Shown: one piece after another, positions 18,068 to 38,406 of the stretch
How the letters are laid out: each line of letters begins with the position of its first letter
How positions within the stretch are numbered: position 1 is the first letter of the stretch
Virus record (IMG/VR): IMGVR_UViG_3300027739_000157
Span: 1 to 39,980 of that record
Strand: one strand, 5' to 3'
Length of the DNA: 39,980 nucleotides
Source of the DNA: a virus
Translations under genes and position numbers: made by a program
Notes under the pieces: generated by a model
What the model saw: the letters and a program-made list of their open reading frames with translations, nothing else
Database searches by the model: none
What the model was told of the DNA's origin: nothing

Positions 18068-18952
18068 TCAGTTGTGGGTGAGCAGAGCGACGCCGGGCTT
18101 CGTCTTGCCGGGCAGGCGCTTGTAACGGTGCACGACCGCGTAGGTCGAGACCACGATGACATCGGCGCCAGCAAGAATGTCGCGGCCAGTCTCGACCTCG
18201 GGCGTGCCGTTGTACCAGCACACCCCGGCTCCCGGGTTTGCCAGGACCGTGGTGTACTTCGCCGGGGTGATGCCCGCGGCGGCGGCGAGACGGTCGCTCA
18301 TGCCGACCGGGTAGCCCACGAACGTGCTCAGCCCGCCGGTCTGTGGACTGACGAGCAGGTTGCGCCCCGTGGCGTCCTTGAGCTTCCACATGTCGTTCTC
18401 GACCTTGCTGTGGGCCATAAGCAAGGAGCGGGCACCCGCTTCGTCTCCCCACTTGGCGCGGCCGTCGATGACCAGGTCGCTGTCGATCGTCCGGGGCGTG
18501 GTGGCGCTGTAGACGTCCACCGTCATCGCGGGCAGGCTCGCCACGAAGGATAGGATGAGCATGCGATCGATCGCGCCTTCGAATCCCGCGACGGCCTGCT
18601 CGGCGGCCTCCTCGTACGGGTCCTTTCCGCCCTCGCCCTTGGCCCCGGCCATGCGAGCCCAGTCCGTGATGGAGAACGCCTTGCCGATCCGGTGGACCGT
18701 GGCTTCCTCCTCGGTCTGCGTGATCTTGGTCGGCGTGAAAGCGGAACCGTCGGCGAGCGACTCCCACTCTCCGATCGAGCCGAAGTAGGGGACCTTGACC
18801 TTCGTGCCGACGGCGTCAGGCCCGCCGGGGAAGGACGAGTTGAGAATGGCAGCGCCGGTGCCCCACAGGGCGTTGACGCCAGCCGCGAAACGAGCGGAGA
18901 CAGCTTCGGTGAGCTCCTCCACATCGACCAGATCCGTGATCTTCGTTGTCAT
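18068..18952 (-). CDS. major capsid protein, HK97 fold
   Basis: A 294-residue protein immediately after the protease/scaffold gene. It has an N-terminal helix (ELTEAVSARFAAGVNALWGT), the strand/loop VKVPYFGSIGEWESLADGSA, then TVHRIGKAFSITDWARMAGA (the P-domain spine helix region), and ends with strands typical of the A-domain (RDILAGADVIVVSTYAVVHRYK). Pattern, length and synteny fit an HK97-fold capsid protein of the Mu/Myxo-type. Sequence is not close to Mu gpT as far as I can recall. Confidence 0.86.
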   Translation of the reverse strand: MTTKITDLVDVEELTEAVSARFAAGVNALWGTGAAILNSSFPGGPDAVGTKVKVPYFGSIGEWESLADGSAFTPTKITQTEEEATVHRIGKAFSITDWARMAGAKGEGGKDPYEEAAEQAVAGFEGAIDRMLILSFVASLPAMTVDVYSATTPRTIDSDLVIDGRAKWGDEAGARSLLMAHSKVENDMWKLKDATGRNLLVSPQTGGLSTFVGYPVGMSDRLAAAAGITPAKYTTVLANPGAGVCWYNGTPEVETGRDILAGADVIVVSTYAVVHRYKRLPGKTKPGVALLTHN

Positions 18953-18967: not shown

Positions 18968-19498
18968 TCAGACCGAAGTCCGCGCCAGATGCTCGGCCTT
19001 GAGGGCCTTCGCGAGTTCAGGGTTGGTGCGCTTGAGCACAGCGCGCTGCGTGTAAGACAGCTCCTCCCACTTCTTGCCGCTGGCGGTCGCCCCAGCCGCG
19101 CTCTCGTCGGTGTGGTTCGGCTTGGAGGCCAGAACGACGGGGAGGGTGTCGATGAGGCCCTTGAGCCGGTCGGGGTCGTCCAGTCCGATGGCGCGGAGGT
19201 TCGCCTCCATCGCGACGGTGACCTTCTTCTCGGAGATGCCCCTGGTGATGAGGTCGTTGACGCGAGCCTCGCTGGCGCCCTTCTCGAGCTCCACGATCTT
19301 CGCCTGGGACTCCTCGAGCTTCTTGGCCGCCTCCGACCACCCCTCGAGCTTGCCGATCGCTTCGCTCACGGTGTTGGCCCTGGTCAGCGACAGGATGCTG
19401 CGAGTCGCATGGATTGCCGAGTTGATCGCCGCGTTCACCTCGGCGTCGGTGGCGTCGGACTTCAGGCCGAGCGCCAGAATGAGAGCTGTGCGTTCCAT
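18968..19498 (-). CDS. nested internal-start scaffold protein (Mu gpZ-like)
   Basis: A 176-residue product from the in-frame ATG 19498 within the protease gene. It starts MERTALILALGLKSDATDAE, is helical, with a coiled-coil segment (AAKKLEESQAKIVELEKGAS), and ends in a basic segment (RAVLKRTNPELAKALKAEHL), the usual shape of a capsid scaffold. AAGGAAG at 19512-19506 gives a good ribosome site. In Mu, gpZ is produced this way within gpI, so this is very likely real. Confidence 0.82.
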   Translation of the reverse strand: MERTALILALGLKSDATDAEVNAAINSAIHATRSILSLTRANTVSEAIGKLEGWSEAAKKLEESQAKIVELEKGASEARVNDLITRGISEKKVTVAMEANLRAIGLDDPDRLKGLIDTLPVVLASKPNHTDESAAGATASGKKWEELSYTQRAVLKRTNPELAKALKAEHLARTSV

Positions 19499-20296
19499 TA
19501 GGGAACTTCCTTTCTCCGCCTTGGCGGAATCCTCCGTGGCACTCGGCGCACGGAAACTTCTCTGATCGAGGGGGCGCGCCGCGGCGAGGGGCTGGGTGAG
19601 GGGCGCGTAGGTGCGAATGACTTCCTGCGCGTCGTCCGCGAGCTTCGCTTCCTGCCCCTCGAGCACGTACCCGCGGCGGTACAGCTTGCCAGCCACCTCG
19701 TAGACGACCGAGTCGTCGTAGACGGCCTCGACCCACGGGTATTCCTCCGGCATCCTGACCCGAAGCGCTCGGTCAATCGCTCGCACGATGACGTCGAAGG
19801 ACAGGCCGGCCTCGAGACGCCGGTCCGCGATGGCTGCGACAGGCGCGATGCCCAGCATTGCCGGGTCGTTGGTCAGGGCGATGTTTCGGATCTCGACGAC
19901 ACGGCCCGTGGCCACCTCGACGTCGCACCAGGGCGAGAAGTACCCCCACTCGAGGTCTTCGATTGCCTTCTTCGCTGCGGGGGTCCACGTGATGCGCACC
20001 GCCCACAGCTCGGGCCCGGACTCGCTGTCTCGCACCTCGAGGTCGAACCATCCGGCCGCCTTCTGGTGCTGAGGGTCGGGGTCTGCCGACTCTAGCGCAT
20101 GCGGGCGGGCGTGGGCGTAGTCGAAGTGCAGGCGGATGCCACGCTCCTCGAACGCTGCCATGACCGCGGCCGCAGCTTCTGCGTCGAAGACGATGGGCCC
20201 GCTGTAGGACGGATTCGTGCCGGCCCGGAACACGAGGATCTCGGACGGAGCCGTCCCCGCCAGCTCCTTCGCCAGCAAGTAGCGCTTCTTCTTCAT
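18968..20296 (-). CDS. prohead protease with C-terminal scaffold (Mu gpI-like)
   Basis: A 442-residue protein. Residues ~1-150 fit the Mu I peptidase (SEILVFRAGTNPSYSGPIVF, IRLHFDYAHARPHALESADP, WGYFSPWCDVEVATGRVVEI, RNIALTNDPAMLGIAPVAAI), including the His-Asp dyad region and the 'T n d P A m' motif. Residues ~150-265 form an extra domain (MPEEYPWVEAVYDDSVVYEV) and a linker; the remainder is the scaffold, also made alone from an internal start. It matures the prohead by self- and scaffold cleavage. Confidence 0.86.
   Translation of the reverse strand: MKKKRYLLAKELAGTAPSEILVFRAGTNPSYSGPIVFDAEAAAAVMAAFEERGIRLHFDYAHARPHALESADPDPQHQKAAGWFDLEVRDSESGPELWAVRITWTPAAKKAIEDLEWGYFSPWCDVEVATGRVVEIRNIALTNDPAMLGIAPVAAIADRRLEAGLSFDVIVRAIDRALRVRMPEEYPWVEAVYDDSVVYEVAGKLYRRGYVLEGQEAKLADDAQEVIRTYAPLTQPLAAARPLDQRSFRAPSATEDSAKAEKGSSLMERTALILALGLKSDATDAEVNAAINSAIHATRSILSLTRANTVSEAIGKLEGWSEAAKKLEESQAKIVELEKGASEARVNDLITRGISEKKVTVAMEANLRAIGLDDPDRLKGLIDTLPVVLASKPNHTDESAAGATASGKKWEELSYTQRAVLKRTNPELAKALKAEHLARTSV
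19506..19512 (-). promoter_or_regulatory. internal ribosome binding site for the nested scaffold
   Basis: AAGGAAG on the minus strand lies 7 bp before the in-frame ATG at 19498 in the protease/scaffold gene. An internal Shine-Dalgarno of this quality in the right spacing is unlikely by chance and decides the scaffold start. Confidence 0.78.
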
Positions 20297-20378: not shown

Positions 20379-20714
20379 TCAGTACACGGCGCCGGGGGAG
20401 TCTTCCCCGGAATCCCTCTGCAGGATCGCAGCCGCTTCCGACGGGATGTCTTGCTCGGCTGGCACGTAGCTCGTCTCCACGAGGTTCGCTCCGAGCCGAC
20501 GGGCCTCCTGCTCCAGGAACTTGTGCAGGAGCCAGACGCTCAGCGGGTCAAGCCGGACACCACCATCCGGAGCTGGTCCCACTCCCACAGGGGCGCGGAG
20601 GTCGATGCCTACCCTGACGATCTCTGCCATCGGCCCGGCCCCGGAGACAAGCACGCTCCCGCGGTCCGTCCACCGGACCGATGTGCCGTCTTCGAACCGC
20701 CACCGATGAATCAC
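20379..20714 (-). CDS. small head-module protein, unknown
   Basis: A 111-residue protein from GTG 20714, which overlaps the upstream stop (GTGA) and has GGGAGG 7 bp ahead. It starts VIHRWRFEDGTSVRWTDRGS, has IVRVGIDLRAPVGVGPAPDG, and ends acidic (DIPSEAAAILQRDSGEDSPG). No family recognised. Its place between the head morphogenesis and protease genes suggests an accessory head or immunity role for the fused zincin. Confidence 0.65.
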   Translation of the reverse strand: MIHRWRFEDGTSVRWTDRGSVLVSGAGPMAEIVRVGIDLRAPVGVGPAPDGGVRLDPLSVWLLHKFLEQEARRLGANLVETSYVPAEQDIPSEAAAILQRDSGEDSPGAVY

Positions 20715-22306
20715 GCCGAGCCTCCCAGGCACCCGAGCACCCACCAGAAGTGCTCACGATCCAGATGGTAAGTCCAGAATGGGTCGAGCGCCAGGTACTC
20801 GATGCCCATCGAGAGCAATTCCGTGGCGTCGAAGCCGTACACCTTCCCACAGTACGGGTCGAACCACATGTCTCGCTTCGCCAGCTCGTTGAGCTTGTAC
20901 GACTTGCCAGTGAGCGACCGGAGGCTCTTGAGCATCTCTCCCGCGGTCCTCGCCTCGAACAGCGCCTTGGCGGACTTGAGGATCGCGGGGTTGCTCACCT
21001 CGATAGCGTGGCCCCACTCGTGCAGAATCGACCGGAGGCTGTACGCCTTGACGATCGGGGTCGAAGCGAAGACGTCACAGGACGCCCTCGACGACGGCTT
21101 GAGCCACCGCAGCACGGACTTGGTCGTGAGGCCGCTGTCGAGGTGGGCGTCCAGCCAGGCCTTCGCCGCCTCGAGCTCGCCGGAGGGGCCCTTGCCGATC
21201 ACCTTCACCATCGCCGCGGTGCCAGGCTTCGCCTTGACACCGTCGAGGTGCCCGAGGATGGCAGCCATCGGGTCTGCGTACTTCACGCCGAAGAAGTCGA
21301 GCGAGGATGCCAGGTCCCGGACCGGCGTGTTCGGGAAGGACTTGGCGAGCGCCTCGATCTTGGCGAACTTGTCACCGGCTCCGACGTGCTTTGCCAGCCC
21401 GTGCGCCCGAACGAGCTCGGCCGCGCGCTCTGCCGTCATGTCGAGGCCTCGTTCCTGAGCCGCTCTGCCCCAGGCCGCCGCCTTCGCTGCGTCTCCGAGG
21501 TGGGCGAAGCTCTTTTCCCAGTGCGCCGCCGTGTGCTCGGGCTTTGGCGCCTTGGCCTTGGGAGCGGCCTTCGGCTTCTCGGCCTTCGGCTTGGGAGTCG
21601 AACGGGGCTTACCCGTCCTCTTGAGCCTCCCCTCAAGCTCCTTGCGGATGTCCTGCGGGTACTTCTTCGTGTCGGGCTTCCACTCCGAAGCCCCAGGCTC
21701 TAGCCCGAATCCGTCTTGCGCCGGCTCGTCCGTAGGCTTCTTCGTGACGCCTTTGGCCTCGGCCTGCGACCGCCTGAGTGACCGGACGATCGACCTGCAC
21801 CCGAAATGCAGCGGAGGGTAGTGGGTCTTCCACCACGGGTCGTCGTGAGGCAGGATGGTGCCGTCCGACTTCTCGCACATCAGCGAGGTGCGGTTGTCGA
21901 GGATGGCATCGAACTGCCAGAACGGCCGGACCTTCACGATGGCCGGGTCGGACTGCTGCTTGTGCCGACCCGCATTGTACGCGGCTTGCGCGTTGGTGCG
22001 GAAGATGGTCTCGAGTCGCCACGCCGGGTTCGGCACGCTCCCAGCCCATGCGTCGATGAGCTGTTGTCCTACGTCGCGCTTGAAGTCCTCGAGCGTCGTG
22101 CCGTTCGCAACGGCACGGTCAAGAGCGAGAAGCACGTCACGCAGAAGGTCGGCTTGCGCCACGCCTGCGACGGTGAACGCCTTGCGCTGCGCTTGTTCGT
22201 CGAGGGTGTCCCACACCGACTTTGGTACAGGCACCCGAGCCAGGAGCCATGCGGCCGCAGCGGAGAACTCCTCCACGTCAGTCGATGCGGCCCACGGCGC
22301 AGTCAT
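20711..22306 (-). CDS. SPP1-gp7/Mu-F head morphogenesis protein fused to a zincin-like metallopeptidase domain
   Basis: A 531-residue protein. Residues ~35-180 are the minor head family: LETIFRTNAQAAYNAGRHKQ, WQFDAILDNRTSLMCEKSDG and the invariant YPPLHFGCRS (163-172). A Lys/Pro-rich linker (~228-257) follows. Residues ~260-531 form a second domain with HEWGHAIEV (HExxH, residues 429-433) and a downstream E in ATELLSMGIEYL (E496 or E503) as a third zinc ligand candidate, followed by a Trp-rich C-terminus. Similar head proteins in other phages carry toxin-like C-terminal domains, so the zincin may be packaged and injected. No signal peptide is seen; function is inferred. Confidence 0.86.
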   Translation of the reverse strand: MTAPWAASTDVEEFSAAAAWLLARVPVPKSVWDTLDEQAQRKAFTVAGVAQADLLRDVLLALDRAVANGTTLEDFKRDVGQQLIDAWAGSVPNPAWRLETIFRTNAQAAYNAGRHKQQSDPAIVKVRPFWQFDAILDNRTSLMCEKSDGTILPHDDPWWKTHYPPLHFGCRSIVRSLRRSQAEAKGVTKKPTDEPAQDGFGLEPGASEWKPDTKKYPQDIRKELEGRLKRTGKPRSTPKPKAEKPKAAPKAKAPKPEHTAAHWEKSFAHLGDAAKAAAWGRAAQERGLDMTAERAAELVRAHGLAKHVGAGDKFAKIEALAKSFPNTPVRDLASSLDFFGVKYADPMAAILGHLDGVKAKPGTAAMVKVIGKGPSGELEAAKAWLDAHLDSGLTTKSVLRWLKPSSRASCDVFASTPIVKAYSLRSILHEWGHAIEVSNPAILKSAKALFEARTAGEMLKSLRSLTGKSYKLNELAKRDMWFDPYCGKVYGFDATELLSMGIEYLALDPFWTYHLDREHFWWVLGCLGGSA

Positions 22307-22309
22307 TCA

Positions 22310-22726
22310 TCACACCCCGGTCGGGTCGCCGAAGGCCCAGTACTTCACGATGCCGTCTCCGGACTGCTCGGCGCTGGTCGTCACGGTGAGAGCGGTGATC
22401 GGGGTCGCGGAAGGCTCGGTCGGGAAGGCGATGATGACCATGCCTCCGGTCGGAATGGAGAACGGCTTCTCGGTACCATCGTTGAACTCCACGTCGAGTT
22501 CCTGACCCGACTCGTTCTTGAGCGCGATCCCGGTGGCAGCCGTGCCGATCCCGGCGAGGGAAATGGGCAACTCGGTGCTGGCCGCCGTCGCGTCGGGAAT
22601 GTCAAGTTCACCGTAGGTCATGGCCTGGTAGGGAACCGAGACGACCTGGGTAGGGGCGGCAGCCACGGCGCCGCCGGGGTTCGGGTAGGACAGCGAGAGC
22701 GAAAACGTTGCGGTCTTGTCGGCCAT
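22310..22726 (-). CDS. beta-rich structural protein, unknown (between portal and head morphogenesis genes)
   Basis: A 138-residue protein with alternating strand patterns (FSLSLSYPN, IALKNESGQELDVEFND, FSIPTGGMVIIAFPTEPSAT) resembling an Ig-like or jelly-roll decoration protein. It starts with an AGGAG-type site before ATG 22726. Not a standard Mu gene at this place; a minor head decoration protein is a guess. Confidence 0.62.
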   Translation of the reverse strand: MADKTATFSLSLSYPNPGGAVAAAPTQVVSVPYQAMTYGELDIPDATAASTELPISLAGIGTAATGIALKNESGQELDVEFNDGTEKPFSIPTGGMVIIAFPTEPSATPITALTVTTSAEQSGDGIVKYWAFGDPTGV

Positions 22727-22738
22727 TGGTGCGCTCCT

Positions 22739-24562
22739 TTACAGGTCCTCGACGACGGATGCCCTGCCGGCAAGCTCCGCCAAGATTGTCGCCTTGTGCA
22801 CCAGCGACTCGAGGGCAGATGGGTTGGTGGTGTTCTCGTAGTGCTTCGCCAGTTCGGCCCTCAGCCTTCCAGGCCAGTCGCCGCCGTCTTCCAAGCCGTC
22901 GATGAGCTCGAGAAGAGCTGCCACGTCGGGCTCGATCGCCGCCGCCGCGGACTGCACCGCACCGGCGGACGCGGTATCCACGAAGGACTGCCCGCGGATC
23001 GCTCCGGCCGCTTCCGATGGGTCGTCTCCTGAGGCCAGGGCGATGGAACGCGCCGAGAGCTTCGCCTCAAGGATGGGCCCAACGATGCGTGGCACTTCGG
23101 CTTGCATCGCAACCAGGAAGCGTTGTTCTGTCATCGCCACTGCATCAGCGACAACTGCGTCCCAGACAGGGCGCTGACGGCTCGCCTTGATGTCGCCAGG
23201 CTTGTCTTCGGCTTCGGTTTCGGGCGCCAGCTTAGGCTCAGGCCCGACCGGCTCTTCCCACTCCTTCCCGTCGACCACTGGGAGCCTGAACATCCGAGCG
23301 TATGCCTCGTTGTCCACGGGAGCGCCGAGCGCCGTCCACTTCTGCAGTGCATCAGCCGCGTCGATGAGGGTCTTCGCGAGGGCCGCGGTGTCCGCCGGCG
23401 GCGTCGTGTCGCGCTTCGGCCACGGGGCCTTCTTGCCGTCTCCGAAGTTGAAAGAGGCCCACCACCAGATGAGCTGGGACCGCAGCGTGGTGGCGCTCGT
23501 CTCGTCGTCGGCTCGGATGATCGACGCCGCTACGGCCTTGTGCACCTCGGCCGCGGCGTAGCTTCCGCCGCTCACCTCGGTGGAGAGGTTCTGCCCGAGG
23601 ATGCGAATGGTGATGGCCGTGTTCGCCATCTCCACCTGGGCCTTGAAGGTCTCCCAGGTGTTGGCCTCCGCCTCGATGAGCTTCAGGTCGTAGCCGGGCG
23701 GCAGAGCAATCGACGTCTCGCGCCCGAGATCCTGCAGGTCCGCCGCGAGTTCGTCGCGGTGTTCCTTCTTCGTCTCGGCTTGTGCGATGCCCACGAGCAC
23801 GCCTTGGCCGTGACGCTCCGAGTACCGCCCCCAGTCGTCTACAGCATAGCTCTTGAGCAGCCACCACCGAGACAGGCTGCGCCACGCGCCGCGAGCCCAT
23901 GGCCGCTTCGCGCCATACGGCATGTAGACGATCCAGGTGCCGTCGCCCGGAGTGACACGCACCTCCGACCCGGCCCGCTGCTTGGCGAACCAGGCCTTCT
24001 GCTCGTGGTCGTAGCGCAGAGCAGACGGGTGGATGACGTCGAATCCGATCGACCCATCGTCCCGATGTGGAAGGAGCCTGACCCCGCTCGGCTGTTCGAC
24101 ACGCTCCCAGCTCGCCACCCTGCCGACGCCGATGCCGAGGATGATGCCCCACTCCATCCACTCGGACAGCGTGTCCTCGGGAACCATCTCCCACCAGTCT
24201 TCGGCGAGTTCGTCGACCGGAGACTTGGCGTCCTGCTGCGGGGGCTCGAACGTGATCGGTAGGCCGAGCAGCCCGCGGATGCGTACCTCACGCAGGCACC
24301 CGGACAGGCGGTCATCGGCGAGGATCTGGTCGCAGAGCTGGGCAGCGAGCCGAAGCGAGCCGGAGTCGGCCATCCGCTCGGCTTGCTTGATCAGGCGCGG
24401 GGTCCACTCGATCGCGGACGCGCGAGGAGGCTCCTCGGCAAACGAGGCGGCCTTGGGGGCTCTGGGGGCAGGCGACGAAGCAAGGCTCACGGCGGCCGCG
24501 ATTGCGAGCACACGCCTCCCCACCTGAGTGAGGGTGTTGCTCGTAGCGTTTCGCCAGTTCAT
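22739..24562 (-). CDS. portal protein, DUF935 (Mu gp29-like)
   Basis: A 607-residue protein. The pattern DQILADDRLSGCLREVRIRG, WWEMVPEDTLSEWMEWGIIL, GVGRVASWERV, FDVIHPSALRYDHEQKAWFA, YGAKRPWARGAWRSLSRWWL, AVDDWGRYSERHGQGVLVGI, and ILGQNLSTEVSGGSYAAAEV is typical of DUF935 portals, which form the dodecameric DNA entry ring. The N-terminal ~40 residues are unusual, hydrophobic and Ala/Pro-rich. ATG 24562 overlaps the terminase stop (ATGA). Confidence 0.9.
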   Translation of the reverse strand: MNWRNATSNTLTQVGRRVLAIAAAVSLASSPAPRAPKAASFAEEPPRASAIEWTPRLIKQAERMADSGSLRLAAQLCDQILADDRLSGCLREVRIRGLLGLPITFEPPQQDAKSPVDELAEDWWEMVPEDTLSEWMEWGIILGIGVGRVASWERVEQPSGVRLLPHRDDGSIGFDVIHPSALRYDHEQKAWFAKQRAGSEVRVTPGDGTWIVYMPYGAKRPWARGAWRSLSRWWLLKSYAVDDWGRYSERHGQGVLVGIAQAETKKEHRDELAADLQDLGRETSIALPPGYDLKLIEAEANTWETFKAQVEMANTAITIRILGQNLSTEVSGGSYAAAEVHKAVAASIIRADDETSATTLRSQLIWWWASFNFGDGKKAPWPKRDTTPPADTAALAKTLIDAADALQKWTALGAPVDNEAYARMFRLPVVDGKEWEEPVGPEPKLAPETEAEDKPGDIKASRQRPVWDAVVADAVAMTEQRFLVAMQAEVPRIVGPILEAKLSARSIALASGDDPSEAAGAIRGQSFVDTASAGAVQSAAAAIEPDVAALLELIDGLEDGGDWPGRLRAELAKHYENTTNPSALESLVHKATILAELAGRASVVEDL

Positions 24563-25950
24563 CGTCCTCTTGCGCTGCGTCTGCCTCTGCGAATTCCGTC
24601 GTAGTCCTGGAGCTTCTTGTTCACGTCCAGGAACGAGATGCCCCACACCAGCGCGTCGACCCTATCAGGCGACGTCTCATCGTTCGCCGGGTCCCATCCG
24701 CACATCTGGTCCTCCAGGCGCCCAAGCATCCCGAGGTGATGTACCCGGCCCTGTTCGTAGAGGGTCGAGATTGGGTCCGCCCGAACCGCCTTGCCCCTCG
24801 ACGCGTGCACCGACTTGAACGGAGGGGCGTCGTCGCGCTCCACCTGCACGTTTCGCTCGACGAGGTCTCCGCCGTTGTTGACCTCGCCGACGATGTAATC
24901 CGCTTCCCAGCGGTCAAATGCTTCGAGGGCTCGAGCGGCCCATTGCGCTGGCGAGTAGACCCCAGAGAGGTCATCCAGCACATAAGCGTGCCCGTCCTCT
25001 CCCAGCCCCACGACGATGATGCCGGTCTCGTTCGACTTCGGGTTGGTCGAGACCGCCGGGTCGATTGCGACAACGACCCGCCGCATCTGCGGGAGATTCT
25101 CCCGCGACATGACCCGCAAGTCGTCGATGCGAGTCCGGACCCATAGAGCGTTTGGGTTGTCCTCGAGAATCTCCGCCTCGAGTTCCTGCCGTCCCAACCT
25201 CGTACCCTCGTACTCGCGGATGATCTGTTCCAGGAACTGCTTTGCCAGGTTGGCTCGATTGTCGTATGTCGTGCCCTTCGTCAGCGCGACATCCTGCCCG
25301 CCTCGGGCGACAAGGGCCTTGATGAGCGGCGTCGGCCTTGGCGTCGTGGTCACGATGCCCTGTGGGTTCGACCCCAGCCGGAATCCGAGCTGCAACTGCG
25401 TCCACGCGTCCGGGTACCGCCAGCTCGCGAGTTCGTCGGCCCAGAACGAATCGCACTGCTTGCCGCGGAATCTGTCTGGCTTCTCCGCAGTGATGCAAAG
25501 CGCCTTCGCCCCACACTTCGGCCATACAACCTGGCTCTTGTTCGCCAGATATAACGGCTTGTTCCATGGAGGCGAGACGGCCAACAGGCCCGACTCGCCC
25601 TCGATCATGATGTCCCGAATGTCGTCCGACGTTGGACCTGCGATGATGAGTCGCTTGCCTTGACCAGATTCTACCCTGTCACGAACCCACTCTGCGCCAG
25701 TTCGCGTCTTGCCGTACCCTCGTCCGGCAAGAATGAGCCATATGACCCACGCCCACACGGGCGGCAGCTGCTGCTCTCTGGCCCAGACTCCCTTCCAATC
25801 GTACAGGAGGGCTCGCGCCGTCTCATCCGGGAGCGTCGCTATCGCCTGGCGAACCTGCCCCGGGCTCATCTTGCGGAGCAAGTCGCGCAAGCGCGTCGGC
25901 AAGCTGTCCACGGGCATCCTCGATTTCGATTGCTCCACCGTCTGGGCCAC
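24559..25950 (-). CDS. terL: terminase large subunit
   Basis: A 463-residue DNA packaging ATPase/nuclease. Walker A is GRGYGKT (residues 76-82), Walker B region CDSFWADE (~167-174), and the nuclease domain has VVVAIDPAVS (Asp ~298) and DRVDALVWG. Ends in a basic tail (RRGRRSARGR). GTG 25950 overlaps the small subunit by 128 bp; ATG 25917 is a possible alternative that loses 11 residues. Position next to portal and small subunit is standard. Confidence 0.92.
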   Translation of the reverse strand: MAQTVEQSKSRMPVDSLPTRLRDLLRKMSPGQVRQAIATLPDETARALLYDWKGVWAREQQLPPVWAWVIWLILAGRGYGKTRTGAEWVRDRVESGQGKRLIIAGPTSDDIRDIMIEGESGLLAVSPPWNKPLYLANKSQVVWPKCGAKALCITAEKPDRFRGKQCDSFWADELASWRYPDAWTQLQLGFRLGSNPQGIVTTTPRPTPLIKALVARGGQDVALTKGTTYDNRANLAKQFLEQIIREYEGTRLGRQELEAEILEDNPNALWVRTRIDDLRVMSRENLPQMRRVVVAIDPAVSTNPKSNETGIIVVGLGEDGHAYVLDDLSGVYSPAQWAARALEAFDRWEADYIVGEVNNGGDLVERNVQVERDDAPPFKSVHASRGKAVRADPISTLYEQGRVHHLGMLGRLEDQMCGWDPANDETSPDRVDALVWGISFLDVNKKLQDYDGIRRGRRSARGR

Positions 25951-32208: not shown

Positions 32209-32570
32209 CAGCCTCTCCTCCCAGCAAAAACAGATTCCTCCACCGTCGCGTCCCACGACTCGGTGAAAAGCTCGAGCTGGCCTGACTTTCGAGCCCTCGT
32301 CCGCCTCGCGTTCGACGCGTGCTCCTTCGCATCGTGACGGAGATGACATCGCTGGCACAGAGCGGCGAGGTTCTCCTCGTCGTTGTGCGTCGGGTCGTGG
32401 TCGACGTGCGCGACCGTCAGGATGACCTTCGATCCCGTGACAGGGTGGGGCTGGTAGTTCTCGGCTCCGCACCACTCGCAGCGGTTTCCCGCCCTCTCGA
32501 AGCGGATGCGTTTGGACAGTTCGCGCCAGTTCGTCGGGTACAGCGCCCGCGCTTCAGCCCGGATCGGCAT
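32208..32570 (-). CDS. HNH endonuclease
   Basis: A 120-residue protein with CEWCGAEN (C31, C34), the HNH core VAHVDHDPTHNDEENLAALC and the second zinc pair CQRCHLRHD (C72, C75). The pattern is a full HNH with structural zinc. GGAGGTGA before ATG 32570. Placed between an MT-A70 methyltransferase and the initiator; it could be a packaging-associated, restriction or homing nuclease. With two methyltransferases beside it, a restriction partner is possible but unproved. Confidence 0.85.
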   Translation of the reverse strand: MPIRAEARALYPTNWRELSKRIRFERAGNRCEWCGAENYQPHPVTGSKVILTVAHVDHDPTHNDEENLAALCQRCHLRHDAKEHASNARRTRARKSGQLELFTESWDATVEESVFAGRRG

Positions 32571-33135
32571 GCTCACCTCCCAGCAGTCCAAACGTAATCT
32601 CAACCCCCAGATCGCTTCCCCAGCACTCCCACCCCGGTCTTGCCCTCCGGGCGAACATCTCCAGACGCGGCACCGCTCCAGCCGTGAGCCTCTCGATGAC
32701 GTCGTATGTCGCACCAGGCTTCGCGCTGTGAGGGCCGCGGGGGGCGAAGACCACCGACCTCACGCCGTGGTCTGTGACGAGCTGGGCGCCACGTCCTCGG
32801 ACCCCGATGAGGCATACCTCGTGGTCGAGGCGGACGTAGTGACCCATGCCCATCCGCCCGTTCTCGCGCCCCCCGGCAGTCTTCGTCTTCACCCACACCA
32901 ACTCGCTCTTGAGGGTGAACCCCCAGGCCTGCATCACATCCAGCGCGGCCTGTTGCATCGCAGAGACCCGCCAGAGGAACAGGAGAGAGTCTGGCGCGAT
33001 CTGTGGCAACCGAATGGCGCAGATGTCTCGCGTCGTCATGGTGCGGTAGTGCTTTGACGCGCCACGACCATTGCCTGGCAGACGGTCCCCGAATCGCCAC
33101 GGGGGATCGGCAAGCACGACGCGAAATGGAGTCAT
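32554..33135 (-). CDS. MT-A70 family DNA adenine N6-methyltransferase
   Basis: A 193-residue protein starting MTPFRVVLADPPWRFGD with the catalytic DPPW (10-13), then MQAWGFTLKSELVWVKTK, LDHEVCLIGVRG and PRLEMFARRARPGWECWGSD, the diagnostic elements of the phage MT-A70 group. It transfers methyl from SAM to adenine N6. Overlaps the HNH gene by 17 bp and the other methyltransferase by 4 bp. Confidence 0.9.
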   Translation of the reverse strand: MTPFRVVLADPPWRFGDRLPGNGRGASKHYRTMTTRDICAIRLPQIAPDSLLFLWRVSAMQQAALDVMQAWGFTLKSELVWVKTKTAGGRENGRMGMGHYVRLDHEVCLIGVRGRGAQLVTDHGVRSVVFAPRGPHSAKPGATYDVIERLTAGAVPRLEMFARRARPGWECWGSDLGVEITFGLLGGEHADPG

Positions 33136-33929
33136 GACGCCAGCCTCGCCGATGCCACACGCACCGCCTCAGGGCTTGAGTCGATCCCGATGCCGATGCG
33201 GCCGAGACGCCGCGCGACGGCAATCGTCGTCCCACTGCCCATGTACGGATCCAGCACGAGATCGCCGGGGTCAGTGGTGGCGAGGATGAGTCGCTCGAGC
33301 AACGCCTCGGGCTTCTGCGTCGGGTACCCGGTACGTTCCCTCGCACATGGGGCGATGATGGGGAGGTCCCAGACGTCGCCGAGGGGGCACCCTGGAGACT
33401 GCTCCGGCAAGTACTGCACCGTCGTCCTCCTGTCGCCTTGCCAAGAGTGCTTCTGCCTCCGTCCCCCATGAGTCTTGATGGTGGAAGGCGCCAAGGGCTC
33501 GTAGAGTTGGTTCCATCGGGACGGAGCGGACGCGTCGCGGACCCACCGAAACAACGTGTCATGCACGCGCTGGAAGTTGCGGGTCTTCGCGGGCCAGCGG
33601 CGGTACCGCCAGATGATCTCGCTCGCAAAAGCAGTCCGGTCGAACACGTCGTCTCCGAGCAACCGCACGTGCGCGGATATGTGCCAGTCGACGTGGATGA
33701 CGCAGCACCCCCACGGGGCGAGCAGATCGCGTACGGCCATGATGCGGGGTGTCAGGTGGGATATGTACTCGGCATACGATGTCCACCGGTCGTCGAACGC
33801 CTCTACTCCCTCGCTCGTGACGTGCTTGCGCTGCGTCATGTATGGTGGGTCCAGGTAGGCGAGCGTGACACGCGTCCCGTCGGCCACGAGCTGGCGCATG
33901 ACGTCGAGGTTGTCCCCGTGATGGATCAT
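33132..33929 (-). CDS. DNA methyltransferase, DPPY type (beta-class N6-A/N4-C)
   Basis: A 265-residue protein with LDPPY (residues 26-30) near the N-terminus and the SAM-binding DPYMGSGTTIAVARRLG near the C-terminus. Motif order (IV before I) fits the beta class. The middle holds a presumed target recognition domain. No cognate restriction enzyme is clearly adjacent except possibly the HNH gene, so it is probably an orphan methylase that protects phage DNA. Confidence 0.92.
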   Translation of the reverse strand: MIHHGDNLDVMRQLVADGTRVTLAYLDPPYMTQRKHVTSEGVEAFDDRWTSYAEYISHLTPRIMAVRDLLAPWGCCVIHVDWHISAHVRLLGDDVFDRTAFASEIIWRYRRWPAKTRNFQRVHDTLFRWVRDASAPSRWNQLYEPLAPSTIKTHGGRRQKHSWQGDRRTTVQYLPEQSPGCPLGDVWDLPIIAPCARERTGYPTQKPEALLERLILATTDPGDLVLDPYMGSGTTIAVARRLGRIGIGIDSSPEAVRVASARLAS

Positions 33930-34929: not shown

Positions 34930-35426
34930 GGGCTCACCACGTCGTAGTACCGACTCGCCGTTGTCCCCGATGCGCAGAGCTTCCCCGCGTCCAACAGGTC
35001 CTTCAGCGCGGTCGAGAGGGTGGACACCTGGCGGCTCGGGACCGACAGTAGGCGGAGTATCTCCACGGGGCGCAATGGCCGGCCCTGCTGCCGAATCAGC
35101 GCCGGGATCTGGTCGAAGAGCGCGAGGCGAAGCGCACCCTTCTCGTTCGGATTTCGGGCTTTTGGGGCCGCTGTTGGCGGCTTCTCCTTCTGCTTGCGAT
35201 CTGGTCCCTTGCTCGACTCCTTCTCAGAGAACACGATCTCGACCACGCCGGGGATGGTCGTCAGTTCGCCGTTGATCATGATCTGGCTGGATGTTGGGGC
35301 TCCGACTTCAACCGTCAGGTCGATAGCCGCCTGGACAGCTCGCAGCACACGCGCCCGGTCGTGTCCCTCGAGCGGAACGAGCAAGTCGAGGACTTGAGTC
35401 GTAGAAGCAAGGATGTTAGCGGACAT
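34926..35426 (-). CDS. winged-helix protein, unknown
   Basis: A 166-residue protein. N-terminal ~70 residues are helical then beta (VLDLLVPLEGHDRARVLRAV, MINGELTTIPGVVEIVF). After a basic linker, residues ~94-166 form a winged helix (ALFDQIPALIRQQGRPLRPV, STLSTALKDLLDAGKLCASG, ASRYYDV). It resembles the C-terminal half of its downstream neighbour. A DNA-binding regulatory or replication role is likely. Confidence 0.7.
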   Translation of the reverse strand: MSANILASTTQVLDLLVPLEGHDRARVLRAVQAAIDLTVEVGAPTSSQIMINGELTTIPGVVEIVFSEKESSKGPDRKQKEKPPTAAPKARNPNEKGALRLALFDQIPALIRQQGRPLRPVEILRLLSVPSRQVSTLSTALKDLLDAGKLCASGTTASRYYDVVSP

Positions 35427-36003
35427 TGCTCACCTCCCCCGAAGCCAGCTTCGCAGCTTCGTGGCGAATCTTCGCGCACGCGATCTCGACCTCGTGTACT
35501 TCCCGCATCAAGTCACGAGCCTCAGAAGCTGAGATGCACCCATCGACCATCGCAGCCCTCCACGCCGAGGAGACGTCACCAACCTCCGCGTGCAAGTCGT
35601 CGATCCGGTCTCGGAGGGTACGGCACGACTCGACCGGGTCGGGCCCATCGAGGTACGCTAAGGCCGACGTCAAAATGAGACGAGCTGCATCTCGCCCCCT
35701 CGCGCTCGACGAGCCCATGACGAGTAGGCGTCCGATGGGCATGGTCCGAGGCATGTCGGCGCCCATCCACCTGTCCACCATCGACCTGGACACGCCTGCG
35801 GCGTCGGCGGCGGATTGCCTCGTAAGGCCGGCGGTCGCAAGGGCGGTGGCCACGATCTGTGCCGCCTTCGCTTTGCACTGCTCGACTGTCCAGGCAGCGG
35901 GCTTTCGCACTCTGCGGACTGTCGGGCCCTCTCGGCACGCGTCATCTTCAGAGGCATGCCCGTTGACATCCATCCCAATGAAAGCTACGTTTCGCATCGA
36001 CAT
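35416..36003 (-). CDS. HTH DNA-binding protein (early regulator)
   Basis: A 195-residue protein. The helix-turn-helix is about residues 57-80 (LTRQSAADAAGVSRSMVDRW); flanks are helical and charged. It might act like CII-type phage regulators. AGGAGG lies 6 bp before the ATG at 36003 (an adjoining GTG 36006 is possible). It is the third gene on the minus strand downstream of the Cro-like gene. Confidence 0.75.
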   Translation of the reverse strand: MSMRNVAFIGMDVNGHASEDDACREGPTVRRVRKPAAWTVEQCKAKAAQIVATALATAGLTRQSAADAAGVSRSMVDRWMGADMPRTMPIGRLLVMGSSSARGRDAARLILTSALAYLDGPDPVESCRTLRDRIDDLHAEVGDVSSAWRAAMVDGCISASEARDLMREVHEVEIACAKIRHEAAKLASGEVSNVR

Positions 36004-36065
36004 CACAACCCTCCTGCGCCCGGCTCCACCCGGGCGTTTGGTTTTTGTAGGCCGTCAGCCCACGG

Positions 36066-36136
36066 AGCCGCCGCCCGGAGTCGAACCGGGACCTCCCGGG
36101 TACAAACCGGGGGCACGACCATCGTGCTGCAGCGGC
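36066..36136 (-). tRNA. tRNA-Thr, anticodon UGU
   Basis: A 71-base cloverleaf on the minus strand. Acceptor GCCGCTG/CGGCGGC, D arm GCAC-GATGGTC-GTGC, anticodon arm CCCGG-TTTGTAC-CCGGG with anticodon TGT at 36104-36102, variable loop AGGT, and T arm CCCGG-TTCGACT-CCGGG. U33, A37 and GG in the D loop are present. Base 8 is C instead of U and base 14 is G instead of A, a C8/G14 change that may be compensatory. No CCA is encoded. It would read ACA, likely rare in this G+C-rich genome. It could also be a phage attachment target, but nothing supports that. Confidence 0.85.
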
Positions 36137-37197: not shown

Positions 37198-37638
37198 CTA
37201 CCGATTGACCAGTGAGCAGTCGGACATCACGACCCGAAAGATCGACATGCCTTCGCACCTGCAATCGACGGTGACGACGTTTCCCCTCGACAGCGCAGCC
37301 ACCTGGGACGTCCATCGGTCGCTGAACATGCACCGCAGCTTCAGAACCTCGTTCGGCTTGCCGGTGCCGACGACGACCATGATCTCATCGGACATGTCCT
37401 TGGCGACCTCGGAAACCTTGCCCGTCACCTCCATGCGCTTGCCGCGATACCACCCGTCCGCCCTCACCTCGTTGCTCTCGTAGTCGGACAGGATCTCGGA
37501 GGCTTCCACCTTCATCTTGCGAGCCTGGACGGCCGACGTTGGTGGCGGAGTAGCCGGCTTCTGCTCCTTCGGGTCGGCTGGCGCGTCCTTGCAGCACCCA
37601 GCCGCGACGATGGCGACCGCGAGCAAGGCCTTGCGCAT
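37198..37638 (-). CDS. lipoprotein with tRNA_anti-like (OB) domain
   Basis: A 146-residue protein: N-terminal signal with lipobox AIVAAGC, then a Pro-rich linker, then an OB-like fold with EILSDYESNEVRADGWYRGK, RMEVTGKVSEVAKDMSDEIM, LRCMFSDRWTSQVAALSRGN and VVTVDCRCEGMSI. This matches the tRNA_anti-like family of bacterial envelope proteins. It overlaps the ImmA-like gene (TGATG), convergent with the repressor gene. A moron-type lysogenic gene, possibly for exclusion of other phages at the envelope. An in-frame GTG at 37641 is an alternative start. Confidence 0.82.
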   Translation of the reverse strand: MRKALLAVAIVAAGCCKDAPADPKEQKPATPPPTSAVQARKMKVEASEILSDYESNEVRADGWYRGKRMEVTGKVSEVAKDMSDEIMVVVGTGKPNEVLKLRCMFSDRWTSQVAALSRGNVVTVDCRCEGMSIFRVVMSDCSLVNR

Positions 37639-38288
37639 CACCCAACCTCGTCCTTCAACACCAGGGCGACGCGCCGAGGGTCGTCTGTCAGCGTCGCCTT
37701 CTTGATCCCGGGCCCGACCCGCTCGAGCTCGTCATCCGATGCCCGCGCGAGCCACCGAAGGTCCTCCTCGGTCGGAAGGACAATCTCTCCGATCGAGCGT
37801 GCTCGCACCGCCCCTGGAGCCACCACGATGGACGCCGCTACCTCACCAACCTCCCCCAGGCGTAGCGCCACCGCCGTCTGGGTGACGAGGAAGGTGTCGG
37901 CCAAGGCCTCGAGGTCGTCTCCAAGTTCGGCCCGCAGGCAGTGAAGGGCTCGCCACGGCATCAGCAGAGCCGCCGCAAACCGGTCGGCTTCTGCCTCGAT
38001 CCGATCATTCCTGCGAAGGTCGTGCCCAAGAACGGCATGCCCGAGCTCGTGCGCGGCGGCAAACCGGCCTGCCGCGATCGGAAGCCCGTGGGCGACGCGG
38101 ATGACCGCGCGCCCGCCGTCGCTCCCCAGCTCCGCCATCCCACGAAGCTCCCTCCTCGACACGAACCGAAGCGCGCCGCGTCCGAGTACAGCTTCGACCG
38201 CGGGGCGGACAGGGACCCGCACGAAGTCATCAAGGCCTGCCGTTCGCAGCACATGCTCGGCTTCGCCCTCGATTCGCTGCCACGTCAT
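37638..38288 (-). CDS. ImmA/IrrE-family metallopeptidase
   Basis: A 216-residue protein: an N-terminal helix (QRIEGEAEHVLRTAGLDDFV), then RVAHGLPIAAGRFAAAHELG, HELGHAVLGH (zinc motif) and EAEADRFAAALLMP, which are the full ImmA/IrrE active-site set. The C-terminal domain is acidic and helical. ImmA proteases cleave XRE repressors in mobile elements to trigger induction. ATG 38288 gives the usual family start; a GTG at 38324 (with AGGA) is possible. Confidence 0.88.
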   Translation of the reverse strand: MTWQRIEGEAEHVLRTAGLDDFVRVPVRPAVEAVLGRGALRFVSRRELRGMAELGSDGGRAVIRVAHGLPIAAGRFAAAHELGHAVLGHDLRRNDRIEAEADRFAAALLMPWRALHCLRAELGDDLEALADTFLVTQTAVALRLGEVGEVAASIVVAPGAVRARSIGEIVLPTEEDLRWLARASDDELERVGPGIKKATLTDDPRRVALVLKDEVG

Positions 38289-38406
38289 GGACGGATGATC
38301 GCTCCATGGAGCCGCTCGGTCCACTTTTCCTGATTCGCTTCAAACGAAACGGAACGGAGTCAAGCCGCGCGCACCGAATGATCTGGTAGCACACTGTGCG
38401 CAAAGA

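What the first reader, a model, noticed from the sequence alone, without database searches (positions are those of the whole stretch)
20711..22306. Head morphogenesis protein fused to a HEWGH zincin domain
The gp7/Mu-F family domain ends near residue 200, then a Lys/Pro linker and a 270-residue domain with HEWGHAIEV and a downstream Glu. Toxin-like C-terminal fusions on minor head proteins are known in outline; a metallopeptidase version packaged in the capsid and probably injected would be new to me. The adjacent 111-residue gene (20379-20714) is a possible specificity or immunity partner.
Basis: partly seen in the sequence, partly recalled or inferred. Interest (0 to 1): 0.85.

Follow-up and report, generated by a model that had tools for sequence, protein, structure and literature searches.

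The report
Phage head protein carrying a metallopeptidase
A phage minor head protein ends in a zinc-protease domain that is probably carried into the host cell with the phage DNA; this kind of fusion was already known, but its small neighbour gene, whose relatives often end in a recurring short tail and which may be its inhibitor, was not described in the papers I could search.

Summary
The gene at 20711-22306 (-) encodes 531 aa: a Phage_Mu_F domain (58-173), a Lys/Pro linker and a 274-aa C-terminal domain with HEWGHAIE. AlphaFold2 models that domain at pLDDT 95. It is a zincin, nearest in fold to anthrax lethal factor and the PPEP proteases (Z 7.7-9.2). In 57 distinct phage sequences H429, E430, H433, Y490 and E496 never vary.

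The novelty claim fails: Jamet et al. 2017 report a metallopeptidase domain on 20% of 191 MuF toxins and a small downstream ORF after 89%. This is a new member of that kind.

Not found described is the partner. The 111-aa neighbour (20379-20714) belongs to a family without Pfam or PHROG match, seen here only beside zincin genes. [quoted passage not shown] Modelled alone, its body is folded and its tail disordered. In two contigs the partner lies antisense.

Best reading: capsid-carried protease effector plus inhibitor (immunity) protein, whose tail may plug the active site. Activity, packaging, injection and inhibition are inferred.

The parts
20711..22306 (-). MuF-zincin minor head protein, 531 aa (P0001)
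21788..22135 (-). Phage_Mu_F domain, residues 58-173
   Evidence: Pfam PF04233 E 2.1e-19; TIGR01641
21536..21691 (-). Lys/Pro-rich linker, residues 206-257
   Evidence: composition
20714..21535 (-). C-terminal domain, residues 258-531: helical front part plus zincin core
   Evidence: AlphaFold2 pLDDT 95.2, pTM 0.93; VIA Z 9.2 lethal factor, 7.7-9.1 PPEP-1/2/3
21008..21022 (-). HEWGH motif, residues 429-433 (two zinc His, catalytic Glu)
   Evidence: invariant H, E, H in 57 of 57; roles inferred
20819..20839 (-). Y490 to E496: candidate active-site Tyr and third zinc ligand
   Evidence: Y490, T495, E496 invariant in 57 of 57; roles inferred
20379..20714 (-). Partner gene (P0002), 111 aa, GTG start overlapping the head gene by 4 nt; candidate inhibitor/immunity protein
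   Evidence: no Pfam, PHROG, NCBIfam or PADLOC match at E <= 1
20382..20399 (-). C-terminal tail of the partner (SPGAVY), predicted disordered
   Evidence: mean pLDDT 58 for residues 101-110, 55 for 111; tail statistics; varied codons

Best explanation
The gene encodes a MuF-type polymorphic effector. Its N-terminal domain places the protein at the portal inside the capsid. A flexible Lys/Pro linker carries a zincin protease (zinc on H429, H433 and E496; E430 as general base; Y490 probably stabilising the transition state) that enters the host with the DNA and cleaves an unidentified host protein. The 111-aa neighbour is the cognate inhibitor or immunity protein of the protease; its folded body binds the zincin domain and its disordered GAVY-type C-terminal tail may occupy the active-site groove. 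Shown by computation: domain make-up, fold, invariant residues, linkage of partner and zincin, recurrent tail. Inferred: packaging, injection, proteolysis, inhibition, and the tail-plug mechanism.
For: Fold and site. Same core on proteins annotated as head or structural proteins in phages of Bacillus, Geobacillus, Flavobacterium and Lactococcus, and on a hypothetical protein beside a structural gene in Streptococcus phage 315.3. 37 of 57 homologues carry Phage_Mu_F at E <= 0.01; L012, L077 and L086 carry a portal domain. MuF relatives mostly lack the domain: 55 of 63 de-duplicated MuF loci have no HExxH C-terminus, as expected of an exchangeable effector; one relative, L096, carries an ADP-ribosyltransferase instead. 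Partner: its profile hit 56 ORFs, all beside a zincin gene and none in the 67 of 176 stretches without zincin. Searches that start from the partner found 9 contigs, all zincin contigs (the contigs the query came from and near-copies), and 16 loci, all with zincin, 15 of them directly upstream, 11 of the 16 on contigs not seen before. Tail. Antisense partners in L012 and L013 fit a protein needed outside late expression. Precedent: small inhibitors adjacent to MuF toxins Apk2 and Bxa (passages of PMC12226406 and PMC11699363). The window also carries temperate-phage-type genes.
Against: No biochemical or virion-protein data were found. The host and the substrate are unknown. No complex of zincin and partner could be modelled. 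The partner profile hits only 55 of the 109 stretches that hold zincin, so partners are too diverged or absent in the rest. The tail is not universal: 20 of 52 zincin genes with a small downstream ORF have none ending in [VIL][YFH], and 3 of 55 have no same-strand small ORF (L013, whose partner is antisense, L037 and L080). In the window the partner is in the late operon, which also fits a chaperone or structural protein. No integrase was identified among the ORFs scanned.
Confidence: 0.6

Rival explanations
1. The zincin acts during assembly: it processes itself or other head proteins in the procapsid, and the small partner is its substrate or an assembly chaperone.
For: PMC5512222 (passages) argues that metallopeptidases in phage polyvalent proteins often do autoprocessing. 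The gene pair lies among head genes and the partner often overlaps it in the same orientation.
Against: The phage has its own Mu-like prohead protease-scaffold gene (18968-20296). Most MuF relatives do without the domain (55 of 63). In L012 and L013 the partner is antisense to the zincin gene. The domain also sits at the end of portal proteins.
Confidence: 0.25
2. The C-terminal domain is a structural or binding module without protease activity, kept for head or DNA contacts.
For: I found no activity reported for any member of this domain family.
Against: H, E, H, Y and E are invariant in 57 of 57 sequences, most of them 20-30% identical to the window's domain, which a structural role does not require.
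Confidence: 0.08
3. The injected protease serves the phage (counter-defence or lysis-lysogeny control) and is not a toxin against cells; the partner protects the prophage-bearing or producing cell. This overlaps with the best explanation and differs in target and outcome.
For: PMC5576092 (passages) proposes a mild role for peptidase MuF proteins. The window has CII-like, ImmA-like and superinfection-exclusion-like genes.
Against: Nothing here separates it from the toxin reading.
Confidence: 0.4

Closest known systems
MuF polymorphic toxins, metallopeptidase group (Jamet et al. 2017, PMC5576092; passages seen)
   Same: MuF N-terminus, C-terminal metallopeptidase (20% of 191 MuF toxins), small downstream ORF (89.4% of 191 against 25.5% of 952 short MuF genes), link with temperate phages.
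   Different: One small ORF lies between portal and MuF gene here. The domain types in their tables could not be compared (supplements not readable). The partner family and tail were not in the passages seen.
Apk2-IapK and Bxa MuF toxin-immunity pairs (PMC12226406, PMC11699363; passages)
   Same: MuF head domain plus enzyme plus adjacent small protein; IapK occludes the toxin active site.
   Different: Their enzymes are a (p)ppApp synthetase and an ADP-ribosyltransferase, not a protease.
Anthrax lethal factor catalytic domain and PPEP-1/2/3 proteases
   Same: Zincin fold (Z 9.2 and 7.7-9.1, 125-140 residues aligned, rmsd 3.0-3.6), HExxH plus distal Glu (recalled for these proteases); PPEP-1 entries mutate a Tyr (Y178) together with E143 (titles), and this family has an invariant Tyr before its Glu.
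   Different: 8-17% identity in those alignments; a profile of the phage family lists none of them at E <= 10; carried by phage heads and paired with a partner.
Zincin metallopeptidases of polyvalent proteins (Iyer et al. 2017, PMC5512222; passages)
   Same: Phage proteins thought to be injected, HExxH plus Glu, MuF among the hub domains of their network.
   Different: No Pfam metallopeptidase model matches this protein at E <= 1; among 57 relatives one hits Peptidase_M66 and one Zn_peptidase_2, both weakly (E 0.002-0.004). Placement among their 12 clades was not testable.

Membership tests
MuF polymorphic toxin | N-terminal MuF domain | tested here: met
   PF04233 E 2.1e-19, above its cut-off
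MuF polymorphic toxin | gene directly downstream of the portal gene | tested here: inconclusive
   Portal_Mu at 22739-24646, but a 138-aa ORF (22310-22726) lies between; [quoted passage not shown]
MuF polymorphic toxin | C-terminal effector domain that varies between relatives | tested here: met
   MuF relatives: 55 of 63 without HExxH, 3 with this zincin, 5 with other HExxH; L096 with ADPrib_exo_Tox
MuF polymorphic toxin | small candidate immunity ORF downstream | tested here: met
   P0002, 111 aa, 4-nt overlap; family-wide 52 of 55
MuF polymorphic toxin | temperate phage | tested here: inconclusive
   CII-like, ImmA/IrrE-like and Sie-like genes; no integrase found among the ORFs scanned
MuF polymorphic toxin | toxicity neutralised by the partner | not testable with these tools
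   needs expression assays
Zincin metallopeptidase | HExxH plus distal Glu in a zincin fold | tested here: met
   57 of 57; model pLDDT 95.2; Z up to 9.2 to zincins; coordinates not held, so zinc geometry not measured
Lethal factor / PPEP family as a sequence family | detectable sequence similarity | tested here: not met
   profile search of PDB sequences at E <= 10 lists no member among its 8 hits; resemblance is of fold only
Polyvalent-protein zincin clades | belongs to one of the 12 published clades | not testable with these tools
   their alignment is not held

The most novel reading that the evidence does not exclude
The partner is a new family of protease inhibitors that work by a C-terminal peptide plug: a small alpha/beta body recognises the phage zincin and a free tail of the type G-x-[VI]-[YF] enters the active-site groove, its terminal carboxylate perhaps facing the zinc. 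One tail would then serve a whole family of capsid-carried proteases on MuF and portal carriers, while the bodies have diverged widely.
Probability: 0.4. Interest if true: 0.7.

Novelty: new member of a known kind. Interest (0 to 1): 0.5.

Why it matters
In the passages read, only two enzyme types of MuF toxins have been characterised, the alarmone synthetases and the ADP-ribosyltransferases; I found no tested member of the metallopeptidase group. This report gives that group an invariant active site, a fold, a set of isolated phages with the same module (for example Lactococcus phage 62503, Flavobacterium phage pippi8-1, Geobacillus phage GBK1) and a specific, testable partner with a short tail. 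If the partner inhibits the protease, it shows how a phage keeps a protease silent in the producing cell and active in the next one.

Tried and rejected
Rejected: 'metallopeptidase version is new'. Rejected: chance HExxH. Thought unlikely: tail explained by DNA-level constraint; the codons vary and the window's next gene starts about 80 nt on. Considered and left open: partner as substrate or chaperone.

Led nowhere: genome-contig scan with A1 found nothing, because only one pattern (HEWGHAIE) was used, so hosts in bacterial genomes were not surveyed. PDB sequence search with the single protein: 0 hits. Partner fold search: best Z 4.5, no clear match, which does not show a new fold. Literature searches for virion proteomics of relatives gave nothing usable (PMC6375668 searched by term only, 0 places). 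Searches behind the statement that partner and tail are not in print: (open-access PMC texts only, listings and passages; supplements not readable). The first partner-zincin alignment (A7) misplaced most partner rows and was dropped.

Rows dropped: 78 loci reduced to 57 distinct ORFs; A2 has one fewer than A3; two of 57 loci (L031, L058) were skipped because the contig ends at the gene, leaving 55. MuF control: the scan kept the best 80 of 169 loci; 8 are the window's own family, 72 were tabulated, 63 remain after 8 duplicates and 1 cut gene. One search had counted 62 (54 without HExxH) through a slip in finding gene ends; one search corrects this to 63 (55), with 0 tails as before. dN/dS against L003, L004 and L009: 0.12-0.42 for the zincin part, 0.11-0.25 for the partner, 0.07-0.14 for MuF, so all are under purifying selection.

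Full report
What is there. The window is a whole IMG/VR virus record of 39,980 bases. On its minus strand, terminase (24559-25950), Mu-type portal (22739-24646), a 138-aa ORF (22310-22726), the gene in question (20711-22306), a 111-aa gene (20379-20714), a Mu-like protease-scaffold gene (18968-20296) and a capsid gene (18068-18952) follow one another. The 531-aa product has a Phage_Mu_F domain at 58-173 (E 2.1e-19), a linker at 206-257 with 13 Lys and 9 Pro, and a C-terminal domain without any Pfam or NCBIfam match at E <= 1. PHROG profiles do cover its core: phrog_33618, phrog_20397, phrog_8561 and phrog_19443, the last annotated minor head protein.

Family. Scans of IMG/VR brought 13 and then 78 loci (the 13 included) that encode relatives of the C-terminal domain. 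Each of the 78 has an ORF with HExxH and a T/S-E within 110 residues. They reduce to 57 distinct ORFs. In their alignment H429, E430, H433, Y490, T495 and E496 are invariant, and E436, Y485, G501 and D516 each hold in 56 of 57. Each sequence carried one of the two motifs by construction of the scan, and my script looked for HExxH, so this is conservation under a selection bias. In eight annotated phage records, where I also looked for HExxH, the later Glu is present each time; the Thr before that Glu is not kept in GBK1, BboS-125, pippi8-1, 315.3 or one PaV-LD gene. 37 of 57 carry Phage_Mu_F at E <= 0.01. L012, L077 and L086 carry a portal domain, L086 together with MuF.

Fold. AlphaFold2 on residues 258-531 with 56 sequences gave mean pLDDT 95.2 and pTM 0.93. 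Foldseek found only weak PDB matches, led by PPEP-1 (E 0.35); the VIA re-alignment of those candidates gave lethal factor Z 9.2 and PPEP-1, -2 and -3 Z 7.7-9.1 over 125-140 residues. These Z values are only just above the level that models without a clear match reach, so I take the match as support for the zincin fold because it agrees with the invariant motif, not on its own. A sequence profile lists no lethal factor or PPEP chain; its eight weak hits include other zinc proteases. BFVD has 7 matches at E <= 0.001, one of them named 'phage head morphogenesis domain'; a second of that name has E 0.03.

Is it new? No, in kind. Jamet et al. [quoted passage not shown] Here the same contrast appears as 52 of 55 zincin genes against 17 of 55 MuF genes without HExxH. 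Iyer et al. 2017 (PMC5512222, passages) describe zincin metallopeptidases as the commonest domain of polyvalent proteins.

The partner. The 111-aa product has no match in Pfam, PHROGs, NCBIfam or PADLOC at E <= 1, and ten relatives have only weak ones (best E 0.005). A profile built from 26 neighbour genes hit 56 ORFs among 176 stretches (many overlapping), every one beside a zincin gene and none in the 67 stretches without zincin; it hit 55 of the 109 stretches with zincin. The seeds came from such genes, so the informative part is the non-seed hits (for example L014, L057, L075 and PaV-LD in L018) and the empty controls. Searching from the partner side: A5 led to 9 contigs, all already known zincin contigs, and three further partners led to 16 loci, 11 of them on contigs not seen before, all with zincin, 15 of them directly upstream. 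In L190 only the C-terminal half of a partner was matched, about 2 kb from the zincin.

The tail. A small ORF (55-130 aa) starting within -30 to +100 nt of the stop and ending in [VIL][YFH] follows 32 of 55 zincin genes (27 of 55 for [VI][YF]) and 1 of 170 other long ORFs in the same loci; 0 of 55 MuF genes without HExxH, 0 of 5 MuF genes with other HExxH motifs, and 3 of 3 zincin genes found through the MuF scan. Fisher p is 7e-13 against the MuF genes and 8e-23 against the other ORFs, neither corrected for relatedness. Three of 55 had no same-strand small ORF and 20 of the other 52 had none with this ending, though several end in similar forms (VP, EY, IL). The convergent partners of L012 and L013 end RVY and RIY and are not in the 32. 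Four of six small ORFs in the annotated phages end in [VI][YF]. Codons at the tail vary. AlphaFold2 on the window's partner gives pLDDT 88-96 for the blocks up to residue 100 and 55-58 after that: a folded body with a loose but recurring tail, which is what a binding peptide would look like. The partner's fold had no clear PDB match.

Orientation and copies. In L012 and L013 the partner is convergent with the zincin gene, on the other strand. L013 holds two zincin genes (3-1865, HMM E 2e-50, and 2543-4342), each followed by its own convergent partner. This pairing through a change of strand argues for a functional pair, and antisense placement fits a protein needed in the lysogen better than an assembly factor. 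That last step is inference.

How it most likely works. MuF/gp7 proteins sit at the portal in one or two copies (SPP1 gp7, as cited in PMC5576092). The linker would let the zincin domain hang in the capsid interior and travel with the DNA. In the new cell it would cut an unknown protein. The partner would silence it in the producing or lysogenic cell, as IapK does for Apk2 by occluding the active site (PMC12226406, passages) and as one of the two Bxa immunity proteins does by binding (PMC11699363, passages). The window's phage is probably temperate: CII-like (35416-36006), ImmA/IrrE-like (37638-38324) and Sie-like (37198-37641) genes. No step of delivery, cleavage or inhibition was tested.

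Verdict. The part worth a bench is the partner and its tail.

Noticed in passing
L012 4333-4638 (-); L013 1865-2152 (-) and 4342-4638 (-): Partner genes are antisense to, and convergent with, their zincin gene; L013 has two such pairs.
   Followed up: yes
L006-L008, from 2072 to 4807; L053 about residues 348-735: Intein-like insertions in the MuF region: Intein_splicing in L006 below cut-off, Hint_2 (below cut-off) and a REase-like domain in L053; the close relative L009 lacks the insertion.
   Followed up: partly
L096 3446-5548 and 5538-5756: A related MuF protein carries an ADP-ribosyltransferase (ADPrib_exo_Tox) in place of the zincin, followed by a small cysteine-containing ORF unlike the zincin partner.
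   Followed up: partly
L018 (Planktothrix phage PaV-LD), L051, L177-L184: Cyanophage-type loci with two or three zincin-profile ORFs in tandem, the partner gene directly after one of them; in L179 the upstream one is a short piece.
   Followed up: partly
L060 4483-6027; L015 from 5012: By eye, a partner-like stretch forms the N-terminus of the next large protein; in L060 that protein also has a weak second zincin match (HMM E 0.038).
   Followed up: no
L190 3001-3135: C-terminal half of a streptococcal partner gene about 2 kb from the zincin gene, possibly an orphan copy.
   Followed up: no
L110, L114, L132, L133, L163 (MuF scan): Other MuF proteins with HExxH C-termini that the zincin profile misses or barely matches, with no tailed partner; perhaps other protease groups.
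   Followed up: no
window 37638-38324, 37198-37641, 35416-36006, 32554-33135, 33132-33929, 36064-36136: ImmA/IrrE-like peptidase, Sie-like protein, CII-like activator, MT-A70 and N6/N4 methylases, tRNA-Thr.
   Followed up: no
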